Shown piece after piece: positions 20,112 through 33,114 of a DNA stretch of 34,263 nucleotides. The notes beneath the pieces were generated by a model, which worked only from the letters and a program-made list of their open reading frames with translations, did no database searches and was not told where the DNA came from. The position numbers and the translations under genes are program-made. Source of the DNA: Candidatus Zixiibacteriota bacterium. GTDB taxonomy: Bacteria; Zixibacteria; MSB-5A5; UBA10806. The stretch's first letter is position 1. Each line of letters begins with the position of its first letter. The DNA is taken from positions 1,438,694 through 1,472,956 of the forward strand of contig CP070813.1 in the NCBI GenBank assembly GCA_020344055.1, written 5' to 3'.

Positions 20112-21650
20112 TTGAAAACGCTGATATTGATAACGGTTTTTCCTGTTCTGGTGATGGCATGGGAATTGCCGCCCGGCCTCGAGCTTGTATCTGCGGACGG
20201 CAATCATGTGACAGTGAAAGACACCAGAACCGGCATATTAAGCGCCTATCTTATTGAGGGCGAACCGGTTATAAATGGGTGGGCAGTGGAACCGACTGAA
20301 GATAGCCTGATTTTTGAGCAAGTGGCCTTTTTCGATATGCGGTTTGCACAGAAATTACAGGTTTTCGATTATAATGAAAATTTACTGCCAGAGCTTATTG
20401 TCTGCAATGTTTCAAATGGTGGTAGAGTGAATATTTATGAAAATCAGGGGAATTTTAATTTTGTTGAAGTTTATGAAACCGATCCGGGTATAGTATATGA
20501 TTCGGGAGATCCGGACGCAGACGGCTTGAATGAGCTTTTGATCAAACTTGACCGGAGCATATATCTTTATGAGCAATTTGAATTTGCTTCATTTCCTGAA
20601 AGCCTGGCCTGGTTTATTACCCCATTACCCGGAAATCACCAATGTTGGCCCCAGATATCAGATTTCGATAATGACGGTTTAAAGGAAATTACTTTTTCTA
20701 TGCAAGATACGCATAATAAGATACGTATTTTTGAAAACAATGGCGATAATAGCTATATCGAAAGATCTCCGATAATCTGGCTTGTACCGACATATCCGGC
20801 TGATTATGCCTATGGCGATTTTGATGGAGATGGCAATAACGAAGTCTTATGCGGAGGAATATATGGTCATCTTGCTATTCAGGAGAACGTTGCCGATGAC
20901 TCATTCGAAGTATCCTGGGAAGCCGAACTTGGACATCCGAATGCCCTTCTTCATGAGAATATTGGCGATTATGATCAGGACGGACGAGATGAATGGGTAT
21001 CGGCAGGAAGAGATTTTTCGGCAGGCGGTTTCTTTTTTAAGGTCTTCAATTCGGTCGGGGATAATCAATATGAAGCGGTCTATTATGATTCCCTCCCGGG
21101 GAATACATGGGATGAGGGTGGTATTTCCGCGGGCGACGTGGACGGCGACGGTATCAATGAATTTTTAGTTTCATCAAATAACAATATTGGTCTTTATAAA
21201 TATACTTCCGATTATGGGTGGAATCGCGTTTGGTTAACCGAGGAAGGCACAGGAGCCGCTTTGACGCTACCGTTTCTACTTGACATAGATTATGATGGCC
21301 TTGATGAGATAGTATTAACGGGGGATTATATTAGAACGAGGATTTACGATCTAGTTCCAACTCATATATTTCAATCTACCGAGCCAAAAACATATTTTAA
21401 TCTTCGGGTTTATCCTAACCCGGCCAACAATAAAATCATTTTTACATATAATCTCCCAAACTCGGCCGATATAACACTCGAAATCTACGACATTCTAGGC
21501 CGCAAGGTCCAAACATTGATCGACGAATTCCAATCTCCCGATTCGTATGCGGTAACCTGGGACGCATCTCATATCGCCTCCGGCATGTATTTCTACCGGC
21601 TTCAGGCAGAGAATTATACAGCTACCCGTAGAATGAGCATAATTAAATAG
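20112..21650 (+). CDS. Secreted FG-GAP/VCBS-repeat protein with C-terminal sorting domain
   Basis: 512 residues starting at TTG 20112, supported by AGGAGG at 20102-20107; no ATG fits the signal peptide. MKTLILITVFPVLVMA is a Sec signal. The central part has several calcium-loop-like repeats of FG-GAP type (PQISDFDNDGLKEIT, YGDFDGDGNNEV, DYDQDGRDEW, GDVDGDGINEFL, DIDYDGLDEIVL), which build a beta-propeller. The last about 80 residues (VYPNPANNK through LEIYDILGRKVQTL and SGMYFYRLQ) match the type A sorting domain that sends cargo through type IX secretion. Its terminator follows at 21666. Ligand unknown; it stands alone with its own promoter. Confidence 0.85.
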   Translation: MKTLILITVFPVLVMAWELPPGLELVSADGNHVTVKDTRTGILSAYLIEGEPVINGWAVEPTEDSLIFEQVAFFDMRFAQKLQVFDYNENLLPELIVCNVSNGGRVNIYENQGNFNFVEVYETDPGIVYDSGDPDADGLNELLIKLDRSIYLYEQFEFASFPESLAWFITPLPGNHQCWPQISDFDNDGLKEITFSMQDTHNKIRIFENNGDNSYIERSPIIWLVPTYPADYAYGDFDGDGNNEVLCGGIYGHLAIQENVADDSFEVSWEAELGHPNALLHENIGDYDQDGRDEWVSAGRDFSAGGFFFKVFNSVGDNQYEAVYYDSLPGNTWDEGGISAGDVDGDGINEFLVSSNNNIGLYKYTSDYGWNRVWLTEEGTGAALTLPFLLDIDYDGLDEIVLTGDYIRTRIYDLVPTHIFQSTEPKTYFNLRVYPNPANNKIIFTYNLPNSADITLEIYDILGRKVQTLIDEFQSPDSYAVTWDASHIASGMYFYRLQAENYTATRRMSIIK

Positions 21651-22893: not shown

Positions 22894-23808
22894 ATGTTTC
22901 AGAACGGAACCGGAAGAGAAGACTACCGAAAATACCTGAATCCCGAGGTTGTCAGCCGGCTGTCATCCATAGAACTTAAAGCCAGGCTTGTAGTTGAGGG
23001 ATTCATAGTGGGTCTGCACCGTTCGCCGTATCACGGTTTTTCGGTGGAATTCGCCGAACACCGGCAATATATGCCCGGCGATGATTTCAAGCATATCGAC
23101 TGGAAGGTTTACGGCAAATCGGACAGGTTTTTTATCAAGCAGTTTGAGGAGGAAACCAACCTCAAGAGCTATATCCTCCTGGACGCCTCGAACTCCATGG
23201 GGTATAAATCCGACGGCATTACGAAGCTCGAATACGGATCTTATCTGGCGGCGTCGCTATCTTACCTGATGCTTCGCCAGCAGGACGCTCCGGGGCTTCT
23301 GGTCTATGACGAGAGAATCAGGTCGTATATACCGCCCAAAGGGGCCCGTTCCCACATCAACCCGATTTTAAGGCAGCTAAATAATACATTGCCTTCCAGT
23401 AAGACCGATGCCTCGGTCGCCTTTCATGAGCTGGCGGAGCGGGTAAAGAGGCGGGGTCTGATTATTGTCATCTCGGATCTTCTGGACGACCCCGAAAAAG
23501 TCCTTCTGGGATTAAAGCATTTCCGTCACCGGCAGCACGAGGTCATTGTCTTTCAGGTTCTCGATCCCTACGAGCGGAATTTCGCGTATAAATCCGAGGC
23601 GAGATTCAAAGACATGGAGACCGGGAAAGAGCTTTTAACCGATCCCTGGCAGATAAGGGGCGATTATATTTCACGCTTGAGCGATTATCTGGGTTGGATA
23701 TCCAAATCCTGCAGGGATTCTCATATAGATTATCATTTACTGGACACCTCGATACCTTTTGACCGGGCGTTGTTCGGATATCTTGCCAAAAGGTCGAAAT
23801 TGGGTTGA
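22894..23808 (+). CDS. DUF58 (von Willebrand A-like) protein
   Basis: 304 residues, soluble. The diagnostic DUF58 core is visible as GFSVEFAEHRQYMPGDDFKHIDW and GKSDRFFIKQFEEETN, followed by a MIDAS-like ILLDASNSMGY motif (DxSxS) and a second VIVISDLLDD strand, giving a VWA fold. DUF58 proteins normally lie next to a MoxR AAA+ ATPase and VWA/BatA membrane proteins, where they are thought to serve as metal-dependent chaperone or assembly factors. None of those partners is present here, so the gene is detached from its usual locus. It probably starts leaderless from the TATAAT at 22883. Confidence 0.88.
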   Translation: MFQNGTGREDYRKYLNPEVVSRLSSIELKARLVVEGFIVGLHRSPYHGFSVEFAEHRQYMPGDDFKHIDWKVYGKSDRFFIKQFEEETNLKSYILLDASNSMGYKSDGITKLEYGSYLAASLSYLMLRQQDAPGLLVYDERIRSYIPPKGARSHINPILRQLNNTLPSSKTDASVAFHELAERVKRRGLIIVISDLLDDPEKVLLGLKHFRHRQHEVIVFQVLDPYERNFAYKSEARFKDMETGKELLTDPWQIRGDYISRLSDYLGWISKSCRDSHIDYHLLDTSIPFDRALFGYLAKRSKLG

Positions 23809-23832
23809 CAGGGGTCTCTTATTGCATATATT
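23805..23832 (+). promoter_or_regulatory. Promoter of the DUF1573 gene
   Basis: Perfect TTGACA (23805-23810), overlapping the DUF58 stop codon, a 16-nt spacer and TATATT (23827-23832). It gives a leader of about 55 nt before ATG 23897. Confidence 0.6.
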
Positions 23833-23896: not shown

Positions 23897-24883
23897 ATGA
23901 GAAAAACAGTTCTGATTTTGGCGATTGTCGCCGGAGTTGCCGCGTTGGCATACGCGGATCCCAGGCTGGTGATTCCTGAGAAAAGCTGGGATTTTGGCTA
24001 CGTGCCGCAGCAGGGTACGTTCACGCATGATTACTGGATCAAGAATACCGGCACCGATACGCTGAGGATAATTAAAGTAAAGCCCGGGTGAGGTTGCACC
24101 AGTGCGCCGATAAGGAAGGACGTATTGGCGCCGGGCGAATCCACGGTCGTGGAGCTGATATTCAAAACCAGATCCTATAAAACAAGAATAAGCAAATACG
24201 CCACCATCTATTCGAATGATCCGGTGCAATCTACCGACAAGATCCACCTTTCCGCAAACGTGTATGCGTCAACCGATACCGCTTTGCCCTTTACGCTGCC
24301 TCCCGGAAACGTGAGCCTTTCCAAAGACAGCAAGAAAGGCAAAATCGTTTTAGAGAATAAGGGCGATTCAAGATTGTGGATTGAACCGGCAGGCGGTCTT
24401 CTGGAGGGTCTTTCGCTGAAGGTAAAGAATGATGACCCGAAGCCGGGGCAGAAATCCGAATTGCGATTTGAGTGGAAGGACGATTTCGAGAAAGAAAACG
24501 TTGAAAGATCGGTTACATTTCTGGTGTACGGCGAGGGGGCGGATTCCACCAGGTTCTCGGTACCGATAGTCTTGCAGGGGACCGATCCCGCGCCACCTCC
24601 CAAGGTGACAAGACCCAAAAGAACAACGACGGGGAAATCAATCGATGCCAAAAAGCGAACAGTCCGCAGGCCGGCGAGGCGGACAACGTCAGCGACAGAA
24701 GATCCCAGAGTAGTAAAACCGGCTAAAACCGAAAAAGCTGAAACCACAAAACCGGTTGACGCGGAAAAACCTGTGCCTTCACCGACTGCCAAAGAAAAGC
24801 TATCATTAGAGAAGAAAACCGAGGAGAGCAAATCGAAAAATTCCCCGCAACCGGCTGGTATCGAATCCGAAGAAAATCAATAG
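23897..24883 (+). CDS. Candidate selenoprotein: exported DUF1573 protein with in-frame UGA (Sec65)
   Basis: Read through the TGA at 24089-24091, the frame encodes 328 residues. ATG 23897 is chosen because AAGGA lies 8 nt upstream; ATG 23888 and GTG 23870 are in-frame alternatives. MRKTVLILAIVAGVAALAYA is a Sec signal peptide. Then comes a DUF1573 beta-sandwich: VIPEKSWDFGYVPQQGTF, DYWIKNTGTDTLRIIKVKPG, then U-G-C-T-S-A-P, and LAPGESTVVELIF with FKTRSYKTRISKYATIYSND. The family has a conserved CGCT motif at exactly this place, so TGA replaces the first Cys. A SECIS-like hairpin follows at 24104-24131. From about residue 235 the protein is a Lys/Thr/Pro/Glu-rich low-complexity tail. A sequencing error or nonsense mutation (TGC/TGT to TGA) is the alternative. 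DUF1573 function is unknown; a U-x-C pair suggests redox chemistry (inference). selA/B/C/D are not in the window. Confidence 0.75.
24089..24091 (+). other. In-frame UGA, proposed selenocysteine codon
   Basis: TGA sits between codons for KVKPG and GCTSAP in one uninterrupted frame. Other genes here (rodA, mrdA, pgk, lgt) end with TGA, so the codon is not reassigned generally. Confidence 0.65.
24104..24131 (+). promoter_or_regulatory. SECIS-like hairpin in the coding sequence
   Basis: GCGCCGATA (24104-24112) pairs with TATTGGCGC (24123-24131) over nine base pairs, including one G-U. The loop is AGGAAGGACG (10 nt), with G at its second position. The loop begins 21 nt after the TGA. As I recall the bacterial SECIS rules, the loop should start about 16-37 nt after the UGA and have a G in its first two bases; both hold. 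The loop also contains a Shine-Dalgarno-like AAGGAAGG, so internal initiation at TTG 24125 is a competing reading. Confidence 0.6.
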
Positions 24884-24904: not shown

Positions 24905-24939
24905 AAGCCGTGGAAATATAATCTTCCGCGGCTTTTTTT
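24905..24939 (+). terminator. Intrinsic terminator between convergent genes
   Basis: AAGCCGTGGAA (24905-24915) pairs with TTCCGCGGCTT (24924-24934) with one G-U pair and an 8-nt loop; seven T follow the CGGC. It ends the DUF1573 transcript, and the T-rich left flank may serve the convergent GNAT gene. Confidence 0.8.
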
Positions 24940-26230: not shown

Positions 26231-28426
26231 ATGGTTCGAGCGAAATTAATTATAGGGGCGGTGTTGATATTGCTGTGCTTGGCCCTGTCTACCTCCGCGC
26301 AGGATATCGAGTTCGTGAGTTCGACGCTGCATCATAATCTGTACAGAGGTATTGGGAGAATAGGGGATTTTGTTTATTGCGGCGGGCCGTACGGGATTCA
26401 TATTTTTGATATAGGCGACCCTTCTAATCCATTTCTGGCAGGAATCTACGACTCAATCTATGTGTCTCGATTTTTTATAGAGGGAAATTTTGCCTACGCG
26501 TTCGGCAGTCCGCCCGGATTGTGGATTTTTGATGTTTCGGATCCATTGGATCCCCAGGTGATTAGCTCGTCGAGTTTTCCACTTGAGTATCCAGGCCAAG
26601 TGGCATACTATAATAATACATTCTATTCGGCTATAGAATCAGATTCCCTGGGCTTTCCTATCGGGATTATATATGTTGTGGATGTCTCAGATCCTTATTC
26701 TCCGGTAGTTTCCGATTCAATGCGATATTCGTATCTTGTGGGGAGCATGTGGGCTGCCGATGGTTATTTGCAGGTACATTTGTACGAATATGGTTTTTGG
26801 GATAATAGCTGGGCAGTATACTCTCTGTCCGATCCGGCCCATCCATATTACCTTACAGGGATGGGATTTGGCCTGAGCTTCATTTTTGGTCTAACGGCTT
26901 GTGATCATTATGCATATTTGTGTTTTGACCAAGTGGTGAATATATATGATTTTTCCACTCCATATGATCCAACACTGGTAAGAATAGACAGCACCGGTAG
27001 TTTCCCGAATTTAGTCATGACGGTTGACAGCATTGGATATGCTTGGACAAATTATGGAATCAGGACTTATGATATGAGTAATCCCGTATTTCCAGTTCAG
27101 ATGGGTTATGCTTATATCTCAGACAATGTATGCTTTTTCGCATACCATGGAGATACGTGTTTTACAACCACTATAAATTCAGTATTGGACGATGATGAGG
27201 CCAAGTTTAACATAATTGATTTTACCGATCTTTACAATCCCTCAGTAATTGGAGAATACTGGTCGCCGGGGACTTCGTATGACGTCCAACTGAGGGGCAA
27301 TTATGCCTTCATTGCGAACGGCACAAACGGGATCGTTATTCTTGATATCAGTATACCTGAACAACCTATGATTTGGGATATTTTCGAAGTCCCTGTAGTT
27401 GCGCTGGATTTATATATTGACGGTAACAGATTATATTTGCTTAGCAATCGTAGTAGATTCAGCATATATGAAATTTCCGAAGACAACCATTTATTCCTGC
27501 TCGGTTATATTAACAATTATTCTGCGGTCACCCGGAACTTCTATGTTGACGGTGATTATGCTTATTTGACCGAAGACGAACGCATAAATCCGGGGGGCGA
27601 CTTTGTCGGGGTATTGGATATCAGTGACCCCACAAATCCAATAGTGGTTGACACTATAGGAAATGTTGTTAATCCGAATTATATTGTAGTTGATAACGGA
27701 TATGCCTATCTGACGACCTCAAATGATTTAAGAATCTATAACGTATCAAATCTCGATTCAATTTCCTTGGTGTCTATATATCCTTATCAAAACTATGGCA
27801 GCCAAATAGTCATTGAATATCCTTACCTGTATATGGCCTGCGCCAATACCGCTTTTGAAATCATAAATATTTCGGATCCAGCCAATCCCTTTTGTGTTGG
27901 TACCTATGATTCTCTATCTTCATCGAATATTACTCTTTATGAAAATTACGCAATATTGAAATATGGAAGCCGATTATATATCATGGATATTTCAGATCCC
28001 GAAAATCCCGAATTAATTTCCTTATATATTATGCCCCCTGTCTGGTATTCGACAGAAGAGGTATACGTACGCGGTCAATATATATACGTTCCGGCTTATA
28101 GCAGATTCGAAATCCTCCGCCTTACCCCTACCGGGATCGAGGAGGTCAGCTCTCTAAATCTCGGGGGCTTCTCTCTCCCCCAGAACTACCCCAACCCCTT
28201 CAACGCCTCAACAACCATCAGCTACAGCCTGCCGGAACCGGCCGATATCCGGATCGAGATATTCGATATCCTGGGGCGCAAGGTGGAGACGCTCTTTTCC
28301 GGGCTGCAAGAGGCGGGGGAGCATACGGTTAGCTGGAGGCCGGGTGATATCTCGTCTGGTATCTATTATTATAGAATAGGATCGGAGGATTTTGGTCAAA
28401 GCAGGAGTTGTTTGCTGATTAAATAA
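26231..28426 (+). CDS. Secreted LVIVD-repeat beta-propeller protein with C-terminal sorting domain
   Basis: 731 residues. ATG 26231 follows AGGGGGAG at good spacing. The N-terminus VRAKLIIGAVLILLCLALSTSAQ is a Sec signal peptide. About a dozen repeats share the pattern 'Y..G..GI.I.DISDP..P...G' (for example VCYGGPYGIHIFDIGDPSNP-like near residue 55 and AFIANGTNGIVILDISIPEQP near residue 360), typical of LVIVD beta-propellers. The last about 85 residues (LPQNYPNPFNASTTISYSL, IFDILGRKVETLF, SGIYYYRIG) form a type A sorting domain for type IX secretion. Base composition changes sharply near 28130, AT-rich in the propeller and GC-rich in the sorting domain. No catalytic site is seen; likely a surface or extracellular binding protein. 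Confidence 0.85.
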   Translation: MVRAKLIIGAVLILLCLALSTSAQDIEFVSSTLHHNLYRGIGRIGDFVYCGGPYGIHIFDIGDPSNPFLAGIYDSIYVSRFFIEGNFAYAFGSPPGLWIFDVSDPLDPQVISSSSFPLEYPGQVAYYNNTFYSAIESDSLGFPIGIIYVVDVSDPYSPVVSDSMRYSYLVGSMWAADGYLQVHLYEYGFWDNSWAVYSLSDPAHPYYLTGMGFGLSFIFGLTACDHYAYLCFDQVVNIYDFSTPYDPTLVRIDSTGSFPNLVMTVDSIGYAWTNYGIRTYDMSNPVFPVQMGYAYISDNVCFFAYHGDTCFTTTINSVLDDDEAKFNIIDFTDLYNPSVIGEYWSPGTSYDVQLRGNYAFIANGTNGIVILDISIPEQPMIWDIFEVPVVALDLYIDGNRLYLLSNRSRFSIYEISEDNHLFLLGYINNYSAVTRNFYVDGDYAYLTEDERINPGGDFVGVLDISDPTNPIVVDTIGNVVNPNYIVVDNGYAYLTTSNDLRIYNVSNLDSISLVSIYPYQNYGSQIVIEYPYLYMACANTAFEIINISDPANPFCVGTYDSLSSSNITLYENYAILKYGSRLYIMDISDPENPELISLYIMPPVWYSTEEVYVRGQYIYVPAYSRFEILRLTPTGIEEVSSLNLGGFSLPQNYPNPFNASTTISYSLPEPADIRIEIFDILGRKVETLFSGLQEAGEHTVSWRPGDISSGIYYYRIGSEDFGQSRSCLLIK

Positions 28427-30690: not shown

Positions 30691-33114
30691 ATGAGTACTT
30701 CAAATCTGACAATACCGGTTTCCGGTATGCAATGCGCATCCTGCGTGGGCCGGGTGGAGAAATCGCTGAAGGATGTCGAGGGAACGGTCGAGGTTAACGT
30801 CAACCTGGCTACCCAGCAGGCGTCTATTACCTATGATCGAGATAAGGCTAGCATTAACGATTTCGTGGAAAGCGTTAAGGCGGTCGGTTACGATGTCCCG
30901 TTACAGAAAACCGAGATAAAAATATCCGGCATGAGCTGCGCTTCCTGCGTAGCATCCATCGAAAAATGGCTTCTGGATATGGACGGCGTTGTTGACGCCT
31001 CGGTGAACCTGGGCGCCGAAACGGCCTATGTTACCCATATCCCCGGCGTGAAGTTCGAGGATCTCAAGGATGTAATAGAATCGGTTGGTTATAAGGTTGT
31101 GAGTACGCCCGCGGAGGAAACCGAGGATTTTGAGAAAAAAGCGCATGATGAATTTTACAAAAAGTTAAAAACGCAGTTTATAGTCTCCGCAATACTAACC
31201 GCTTTGGTGCTGATATTCGCTATGACGCCTCTCCTCCCGGCAGGTATCAGCCGATACGCCCAGTTGATAGTCACCATACCTATCGTTTTCTGGGCGGGAT
31301 CGAGGTTCTATATCGGATTTATAAAGGGACTGAAGCATAAAACCGCCGACATGAACACCCTGGTGGCGGTAGGAACCGGTTCGGCGTTTCTCTATAGCGT
31401 GGTGGCAACGTTTTTCCCGGGATTATTCGAATCGGCCGGTAGGGCCGCCGATGTCTATTATGATACCGCTGCGGTGATTATAACCCTGATACTTCTGGGT
31501 CGCACGCTGGAGGCCCGCGCCAAGAGCCACACCTCCGACGCGGTCAGGAAGCTGGCGGGGCTGCAGGCCAAAACCGCCAGGGTGATCCGGGACGATAACG
31601 AAATCGATATCGATATAAAGGATGTTGTTGTAGGGGATATTGTGATTGTGCGGCCGGGCGAGAAGATACCGGTGGACGGGGAGATAATTGATGGTTTTTC
31701 CGCCATCGACGAATCGATGCTGACCGGTGAGTCGATCCCGGTGGATAAAAGTATCGGCGATAAGGTTATCGGCGCCACCATAAACAAGGTGGGGAGTTTC
31801 AAATTCAAGGCCACCAGGATCGGCAAGGATACGGCCTTAGCGCAGATAATCCAGATGGTGAAACAGGCGCAGGGATCAAAGGCGCCGGTACAGAGGCTGG
31901 CCGATAAGATCGCGGGGATATTCGTGCCGATCGTTATCGGGATAGCGGTGGTGACGTTTATCGTCTGGTTTTTTGCCGGGCCGGAGCCGGCGTTGACCAT
32001 CGCGCTTTTGAATTTTGTTTCGGTTATGATAATCGCCTGCCCCTGCGCGCTGGGGCTGGCGACACCAACGGCGGTGATGGTGGGAACCGGTCTGGGGGCC
32101 GAGCACGGGATATTAATAAAAGGCGGTGAAATACTGGAGAAAGCCCGCGAGATAGACACCGTGGTTTTCGATAAGACCGGAACATTAACAAAAGGAACTC
32201 CCGAGGTCACCGATATTGTTGCGTCCGATAATTTCGACGAAGATAAGATATTGTATTACACCGCTTCCCTCGAAAAAAGATCGGAGCATCCACTGGGAAT
32301 GGCGATAGTTAAAAAAGCCGAAGCGAAGAATGTAAAATTGGCAGAACCGGAAAACTTTCTGGCGATTGAGGGAAAGGGGATATCCGGAAGTGTGGATGGT
32401 AACCGAATCCTCCTGGGGAAGACCGGGTTTTTGACCGAAAAGGAGATTGATCTCTCCGGTGTAGAGAATAAAATTAAAGAGCTATCCGAAGAGGGCAAGA
32501 CGGTGATGATTCTCGCCGTCGATAAGAAAGCGGCCGGCGTCATCGCCGTGGCCGATACGTTGAAAGATGAGGCGCCGGGAATAATAGACCAGTTGAATAA
32601 AAGCAAGATCGTACCGGTGATGATAACCGGCGATAACGCCCAGACCGCTCAGGCCATCGCCGGGAAAGCCGGGATAATCGAGGTGGTCGCCGAGGTCCTG
32701 CCGCAGGAGAAGGCGGAGCGGGTGAAGCAACTGCAATCTGAGGGCAAGAAGGTGGCCATGGTGGGTGACGGGATCAACGACGCGGTGGCTCTCGCCCAGG
32801 CCGATATCGGGATAGCGATCGGCACCGGCACCGACGTGGCGCTGGAGGCGTCCGATATCACGCTGGTGGGCGGCGACCTGGCGGGGGTGCCCAGGGCCAT
32901 CAGGCTGTCGAAAAAGACGCTGGCCACCATCAAATGGAATCTTTTCTGGGCGTTTATTTATAATATCATTGGTATCCCCATCGCGGCGGGGATATTATAT
33001 CCCGTGTTTGGGACCGCCGGATTTTTGAGCCCCATGATAGCGTCGGGGGCCATGGCGTTCTCGTCGGTGTTTGTGGTGACGAATTCTCTCAGATTGAAAA
33101 AAGCGAAGATATAG
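30691..33114 (+). CDS. copA: Copper-translocating P1B-type ATPase
   Basis: 807 residues, full length. Two N-terminal heavy-metal-associated domains carry GMQCASC (C15/C18) and GMSCASC (C83/C86). The membrane metal site is CPC (450-452) in [13 protein letters not shown], and the last helix has [13 protein letters not shown], the MSSxxVxxNxLRL signature of the Cu+ (P1B-1) group. Phosphorylated Asp494 is in [12 protein letters not shown], the P1B-specific HP in [10 protein letters not shown], the TGES loop in [12 protein letters not shown], and the hinge in [17 protein letters not shown]. It exports Cu+ from the cytoplasm at the cost of ATP. No copper chaperone or regulator gene is adjacent, and the ATG has no ribosome site. 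Confidence 0.95.

What the first reader, a model, noticed from the sequence alone, without database searches (positions are those of the whole stretch)
23897..24883. Probable new selenoprotein family: DUF1573 with UGA replacing the first Cys of CGCT
Seen: one frame of 64 codons, TGA (24089-24091), then 263 codons to TAG, with domain sequence continuous across the TGA (KVKPG-U-GCTSAP). Known: DUF1573 members carry a conserved CGCT at this point, so TGA falls exactly on a Cys, the hallmark of Sec replacement. A 9-bp hairpin with a G in its loop starts at the right distance. Inference: an exported protein with a Sec-Gly-Cys redox pair. I do not recall DUF1573 among the standard bacterial selenoprotein families but cannot verify that.
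Basis: partly seen in the sequence, partly recalled or inferred. Interest (0 to 1): 0.93.

Follow-up and report, generated by a model that had tools for sequence, protein, structure and literature searches.

The report
Exported DUF1573 selenoprotein with Sec-Gly-Cys
A gene in a bacterium of the Zixibacteria group carries an in-frame UGA codon that is very likely read as selenocysteine, giving a predicted exported protein with a likely redox pair; this kind of selenoprotein was already listed in print, but here its motif occurs in 104 of 132 genomes of one class, often beside cysteine twins.

Summary
In detail: window 23897-24883 is one frame with a single in-frame TGA (24089-24091) inside an unbroken DUF1573 domain. 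The selenocysteine reading is strongly supported: the genome has tRNA-Sec(UCA), selA, selB and a selD that itself holds a TGA. In 113 DUF1573 domains from 54 genomes of the class, the codon at this column is TGA 53, TGC 47, TGT 13, nothing else. A tree of 109 needs 17 Sec/Cys changes. RNA after the TGA folds better than synonymous recodings (mean z -1.53); after Cys codons it does not (-0.03). The motif with TGA occurs in 104 of 132 genomes, with TAA/TAG in 5. The claim of a NEW family fails: DUF1573 with UxC/UGC (OS_HP2, pfam07610) stands in tables of 2008, 2022 and 2026, and NCBIfam has a model. Added here: the window protein scores below that model's cut-off (72 of 100 bits), relatives lie in Sec/Cys arrays (26 of 45 TGA loci), and its nearest database entries cover only about 77% of it. 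Against: two assemblies with TGA genes show no Sec genes. Likely an envelope thiol-redox protein on an Ig-like fold; substrate unknown, no redox gene recognised beside it.

The parts
23897..24883 (+). DUF1573 selenoprotein gene, 328 residues with predicted Sec at 65, stop TAG
   Evidence: 72% identical same-genus relative with the TGA at the same place
24089..24091 (+). in-frame TGA, predicted Sec codon (residue 65, first position of the CGCT motif)
   Evidence: (53 TGA and 60 Cys codons of 113, no other)
24104..24131 (+). predicted bSECIS hairpin, 9 pairs; its seven outer pairs hold in 5 of 5 TGA members of the own family, the two inner in 4 of 5
23897..23956 (+). predicted signal peptide (residues 1-20, AYA before DP)
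   Evidence: read from the sequence; helix 2-17 in the model; no signal-peptide program was run
23975..24262 (+). DUF1573 / HYDIN-type Ig-like domain, residues 27-122
24287..24574 (+). second Ig-like domain, about residues 131-226
   Evidence: model strands 139-226; PapD-like chaperones align over 131-228; PF07610 gives a second, weaker stretch whose place is not shown
24587..24880 (+). Lys/Pro/Thr-rich tail, residues about 231-328, low confidence in the model
   Evidence: pLDDT block means 44-71; composition
23805..23832 (+). promoter-like site TTGACA-16-TATATT, 11 of 12, between the DUF58 gene and this gene
   Evidence: 3 such sites in the region, shuffled mean 3.0
24905..24934 (+). terminator-like hairpin, 11 pairs, followed by a T run
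   Evidence: 6 in the region, shuffled mean 2.8

Best explanation
The gene at 23897-24883 has one in-frame TGA exactly where DUF1573 relatives have the first cysteine of CGCT, and this TGA is very likely decoded as selenocysteine, giving a predicted exported protein with a likely Sec-Gly-Cys redox pair. Steps. (1) Shown: the frame, the domain, the TGA/Cys alternation across relatives, the Sec genes in this genome. (2) Inferred: SelB with Sec-tRNA reads the TGA, helped by the hairpin right after it. (3) Predicted: the protein is exported by its signal peptide and folds as two Ig-like domains with U65-G66-C67 in the loop after strand 56-63, plus a disordered basic tail. (4) Inferred: U65 and C67, the only selenocysteine and cysteine of the protein, form a selenenylsulfide and exchange with thiols or disulfides of envelope partners, Sec65 being the attacking residue. 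The kind itself, a DUF1573 selenoprotein with UxC, was already known.
For: Machinery in G000: tRNA-Sec 68.8 bits, cut-off 47, ARAGORN tRNA-SeC anticodon tca, selB 365.5 bits, selA 452.2, selD 342.9 with one TGA, in CAG-U-AAK. Codon at the column in 113 domains: TGA 53, TGC 47, TGT 13; no TGA elsewhere in any of the 113; Cys at +2 in 113 of 113. Tree of 109: 17 Sec/Cys changes, at least 13 forced by starred branches. Downstream RNA: mean z against synonymous recoding -1.53 in 53 TGA genes, -0.03 in 60 Cys genes, Mann-Whitney p 3.5e-10; stem of 7 or more pairs in 47 of 53 against 26 of 60. Motif TGA-GGN-TGY-ACN-NNN-GCN-CC in 104 of 132 class genomes (123 sites listed); its backwards control 8 sites in 7 genomes; the motif with TAA/TAG 5 sites in 5 of 132. 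TGA is otherwise a stop here: the DUF58 gene just upstream ends in TGA at 23806-23808. dN/dS 0.098 after the TGA. selB at E up to 1e-60 in 51 of 58 genomes, 50 over the cut-off; tRNA-Sec in 52 of 58.
Against: No protein-level proof of Sec. Two assemblies with TGA genes, G025 (100% complete, 110 contigs, 1 TGA gene) and G034 (94%, 540 contigs, 3 TGA genes), show no selB or tRNA-Sec, and no selA (G025) or only a 20-bit match (G034); a missing contig is likely, not shown. My crude bSECIS rule did not separate TGA from Cys genes (35 of 53 against 30 of 60, p 0.09); RNAalifold found no common hairpin; covariation per pair is weak except at one pair, the hairpin lying in different registers. For the redox step: no redox gene among the 10 of 16 listed recurrent neighbour groups that I named, each by one representative, nor among the ten window neighbours scanned; no activity is known.
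Confidence: 0.87

Rival explanations
1. The TGA is Sec, but U65-Gly-C67 is a metal site (soft metals such as copper or mercury) rather than a thiol-exchange pair.
For: CxC and UxC motifs can hold soft metals (general knowledge, recalled); only two chalcogen residues in the window protein; a heavy-metal P-type ATPase gene lies about 6 kb downstream at 30691-33114.
Against: The second position is never TGA while the first often is (53 of 113), which fits an attacking residue. Whether the ATPase recurs beside relatives was not tested.
Confidence: 0.2
2. The TGA is a true stop and the gene is a pseudogene, or the TGA is a sequencing error.
For: Database prediction splits the gene: P0002, 252 residues, 100% identical over 77%, equals the frame that starts at 24125; two assemblies with TGA genes lack Sec genes.
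Against: TGA at this codon in 53 of 113 domains, motif in 104 of 132 genomes against 5 for TAA/TAG; dN/dS 0.098 after the TGA; full Sec machinery in the same genome.
Confidence: 0.02
3. The genome reads TGA as another residue everywhere (a changed code).
For: Only that the frame is open if TGA is read as any residue.
Against: The DUF58 gene upstream ends in TGA at 23806-23808, as do many DUF1573 genes of the class; the genome has a tRNA with anticodon TCA that scores as tRNA-Sec; only Cys codons alternate with TGA.
Confidence: 0.01

Closest known systems
OS_HP2 / DUF1573 selenoprotein (pfam07610, motif UxC or UGC; PMC2398784, PMC9312934, PMC13188914; NCBIfam NF041425)
   Same: Same Pfam domain, Sec at the first position of U-x-C, Cys homologues known.
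   Different: Window protein scores 72.1 bits against NF041425, cut-off 100; Zixibacteria instead of the gutless-worm symbiont and marine samples named in print; Sec/Cys arrays in relatives; long basic tail. No direct comparison with the sequences of those papers was made.
Cys-form DUF1573 proteins (PF07610)
   Same: Same domain and CxC motif; 60 of the 113 domains in this class.
   Different: Cys instead of Sec, no excess folding downstream.
HYDIN/CFA65/VesB-type Ig-like domains (PF22544) and PDB 2qsv
   Different: A shared fold shows no function; Sec is not among the features reported for these entries in the calls.
N-terminal domain of DsbD (recalled, from no call)
   Same: As recalled, a periplasmic Ig-like domain with a redox-active Cys pair, so thiol exchange on such a fold has a precedent.
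   Different: Not compared here; as recalled, its Cys pair is spaced differently and has no Sec.

Membership tests
Bacterial selenoprotein | in-frame UGA inside a conserved domain | tested here: met
Bacterial selenoprotein | Cys in homologues at the UGA position | tested here: met
   TGA 53, TGC 47, TGT 13 of 113
Bacterial selenoprotein | SelA, SelB, SelD and tRNA-Sec in the genome | tested here: met
Bacterial selenoprotein | SECIS hairpin just after the UGA | tested here: inconclusive
   hairpin present and folding enriched over Cys homologues, but my bSECIS-like rule did not discriminate, no consensus fold was found, and no program made for bSECIS was at hand
Bacterial selenoprotein | selenium in the protein shown by experiment | not testable with these tools
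   none
DUF1573 (PF07610) | score over the gathering cut-off | tested here: met
   81.1 against 26.1
DUF1573 UxC selenoprotein as tabulated in print (OS_HP2, pfam07610) | pfam07610 with in-frame UGA at the first position of UxC | tested here: met
NCBIfam NF041425 OS_HP2_seleno | score over the curated cut-off of 100 bits | tested here: not met
   72.1 bits for the window protein; all 23 members of A1 match at E up to 1e-5, best E 3.1e-23, whose bits are not shown and are inferred to be under 100
Thiol-disulfide oxidoreductase | thiol exchange activity | not testable with these tools
   motif only
Thiol-disulfide oxidoreductase | thioredoxin-type fold | tested here: inconclusive
   the model is two Ig-like beta domains; no direct comparison with thioredoxins was made

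The most novel reading that the evidence does not exclude
Zixibacteria run a dedicated envelope redox system built on Ig-like domains: neighbouring DUF1573 paralogues, often one with Sec-Gly-Cys and others with Cys-x-Cys, pass electrons to one another or to shared partners, a multi-copy thiol-exchange relay without a thioredoxin fold, in which Sec and Cys have been swapped many times within one class.
Probability: 0.25. Interest if true: 0.66.

Novelty: new member of a known kind. Interest (0 to 1): 0.42.

Why it matters
It turns a scarcely described entry in selenoprotein tables (2 Sec and 354 Cys sequences in PMC2398784, as I read its columns) into a widespread feature of one class: the motif is in 104 of 132 genomes. 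Sec and Cys copies side by side in one genome (26 of 45 TGA loci), with at least 13 changes on the tree, give natural pairs to ask what selenium buys in an envelope protein of unknown function. It also shows that gene prediction can lose nearly the first quarter of such a gene (P0002), and that the curated NCBI cut-off misses at least the window protein.

Tried and rejected
New-family claim: rejected on the printed tables and NF041425. The original 2007 paper is not held; its title was seen in a reference list only, so I rest on passages of later papers that cite it.

Consensus fold over the TGA genes with RNAalifold gave no structure, probably since the stem lies in different registers: stems of 7 or more pairs have column sums of 47 in 20, 46 in 12, 63 in 10, 53 in 6 and 44 in 6 of 53. 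The crude bSECIS rule did not discriminate. A neighbour tally looked for a redox partner; among the groups named, each by one representative, were DUF58 directly upstream in 5 of 45 TGA loci, LexA divergent in 16, a Y-family polymerase in 10, GWxTD in 15, MacB/FtsX in 13, and an ABC ATPase in 10; 6 of the 16 listed groups were not named. Rfam finds only the tRNA-Leu in the window at gathering cut-offs. By sequence no solved structure matched well: with the profile, HYDIN and 2qsv at E about 1e-5, the 2qsv stretch (profile 145-216) not covering the motif. No thioredoxin-fold chain is among the 50 rows shown in each, which excludes nothing. Held papers with Zixibacteria and selenocysteine or selenoprotein: one, the same for both searches, where in the passages seen Zixibacteria is a binned genome; another with DUF1573 lists it in an iron-response table (passage).

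The scan of genome contigs was seeded by a CGCT pattern and so started from Cys forms only (147 of 234 stretches confirmed, 80 kept); it served for organism names and alignment rows, not for counts.

Full report
What is there. DUF1573 (PF07610) matches residues 27-122 across the TGA at 81.1 bits. A promoter-like site (23805-23832; 3 such sites in the region, shuffled mean 3.0) and an 11-pair terminator-like hairpin (24905-24934) frame the gene, so it may be a single-gene unit behind a DUF58 gene that ends in TGA at 23806-23808.

Is the TGA read as selenocysteine? The genome (one contig, 3.83 Mb, 90% complete) has tRNA-Sec (68.8 bits, cut-off 47; anticodon TCA by ARAGORN), selB (365.5 bits), selA (452.2) and selD (342.9), the last three side by side at 1600362-1604601, and selD has one TGA in CAG-U-AAK, where the active-site Cys or Sec of SelD stands as I recall. 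So the organism very likely makes selenoproteins.

Relatives. A search of 58 genomes found homologues in 57. I fetched 60 regions from 54 of them and read the DUF1573 domains with E up to 1e-8 with TGA left open: 113 domains including the window. The codon at the column of U65 is TGA in 53, TGC in 47, TGT in 13; no other codon occurs, and no TGA occurs elsewhere in any of the 113 domains. The residue two places on is Cys in all 113, the next is Thr in all 53 TGA domains and 48 of 60 Cys domains. On a tree of 109 of them Sec and Cys change at least 13 times by starred branches, 17 in the best tree (the bootstrap had not settled). Of 45 loci with TGA (window included), 26 also hold a Cys copy and 5 hold two or three TGA copies only (counted). 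A motif scan of 132 genomes of the class gave TGA sites in 104 genomes (123 sites in the listing, not each checked to lie in a DUF1573 gene); the backwards control gave 8 sites in 7 genomes, the motif with TAA or TAG 5 sites in 5 genomes. So a few of the 123 may be chance. Against the same-genus relative dN/dS is 0.143 before and 0.098 after the TGA, dS close to saturation; against the next relative dS is saturated and pN/pS is 0.32 and 0.38.

RNA. After the TGA comes a stem of nine pairs (24104-24112 with 24123-24131) with G in second loop position. Of four stretches folded, three are lower than most shuffles (1, 10 and 0 of 200 as low) and the 62-base one is ordinary (29 of 200). In the class, the 45 bases after a TGA fold better than synonymous recodings of themselves (mean z -1.53, n 53); the same bases after Cys codons do not (-0.03, n 60; p 3.5e-10); 45 bases taken 150 bases downstream of the codon fold about alike in both (-7.6 and -7.5 kcal/mol). 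A stem of at least 7 pairs is present in 47 of 53 against 26 of 60. Against: a crude bSECIS rule gave 35 of 53 and 30 of 60 (p 0.09), RNAalifold found no common structure, and pair counts show a clear excess at one pair only (15-32: 34 of 48, expected 20.6). In the five TGA members of the window's own family the seven outer pairs hold in 5 of 5.

Results against. selB (E up to 1e-60) is found in 51 and tRNA-Sec in 52 of 58 genomes. Five lack both: G019, G038 and G048 have no TGA site, as expected, but G025 (1) and G034 (3) do, with no selA in G025 and a 20-bit match in G034. They have 110 and 540 contigs; I take this as missing contigs, not shown. Of three that lack one of the two, G046 has no TGA site, G054 (tRNA-Sec, selA fragment at a contig end) has one, and G055 (selB only) has two.

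Known or new. It is not a new selenoprotein family. PMC2398784 (passages) lists OS_HP2, pfam07610, motif UxC; PMC9312934 (passages) lists DUF1573, pfam07610, UGC, citing Zhang and Gladyshev 2007; PMC13188914 (passages) lists it again. NCBIfam NF041425 is named OS_HP2 family (seleno)protein; the window protein scores 72.1 bits there, cut-off 100, and all 23 proteins tested match with a best E of 3.1e-23. So the kind is known and this is a new, divergent member. In the held library one paper joins Zixibacteria with selenocysteine or selenoprotein, and in the passages seen it names Zixibacteria only as a binned genome. The organism is placed in Candidatus Zixiibacteriota by the name of the 70% identical protein P0005 and by the record title of L107, which has the length and match place of contig C86 of G004, a genome of the window's family. 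The database entry of this gene, P0002, has 252 residues and equals in length and place the frame that starts at 24125; most of the next ten entries cover 74-77% of the query, as if they too began after the TGA, though I did not check each. No name listed or 82 (120 of 123 rows listed there) says selenoprotein; most rows bear none.

Verdict. Selenocysteine reading about 0.95; envelope redox role about 0.6; new family rejected.

Noticed in passing
L054:7980-11268, L055, L056, L058, L067, L089 and others: Clusters of two to four neighbouring DUF1573 genes, with Sec and Cys copies side by side in 26 of 45 TGA loci; three TGA copies in G013 (L055) and G034 (L067).
   Followed up: partly
L061:9912-10604 and 15 other loci: A LexA-group gene (named by one representative) lies divergently next to the DUF1573 genes in 16 of 45 TGA loci, with a Y-family polymerase group nearby in 10; shared regulation or mere synteny.
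   Followed up: no
G025 and G034 (L061, L067): Assemblies with TGA DUF1573 genes but without recognisable selA, selB or tRNA-Sec: assembly gap, or loss of Sec decoding with the genes still open.
   Followed up: partly
window 20112-21650 and 26231-28426: Two proteins with Por_Secre_tail sorting domains, which hint at a type IX secretion system in this organism.
   Followed up: no
window 30691-33114: Heavy-metal P-type ATPase with two HMA stretches, about 6 kb downstream of the selenoprotein gene.
   Followed up: no
G000:C1:3688504-3689109 (L090): The same genome has a second DUF1573 gene with TGC (Cys) at the Sec position.
   Followed up: partly
L065 and L071: Two TGA domains have His instead of Gly between Sec and Cys (U-H-C-T).
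   Followed up: no
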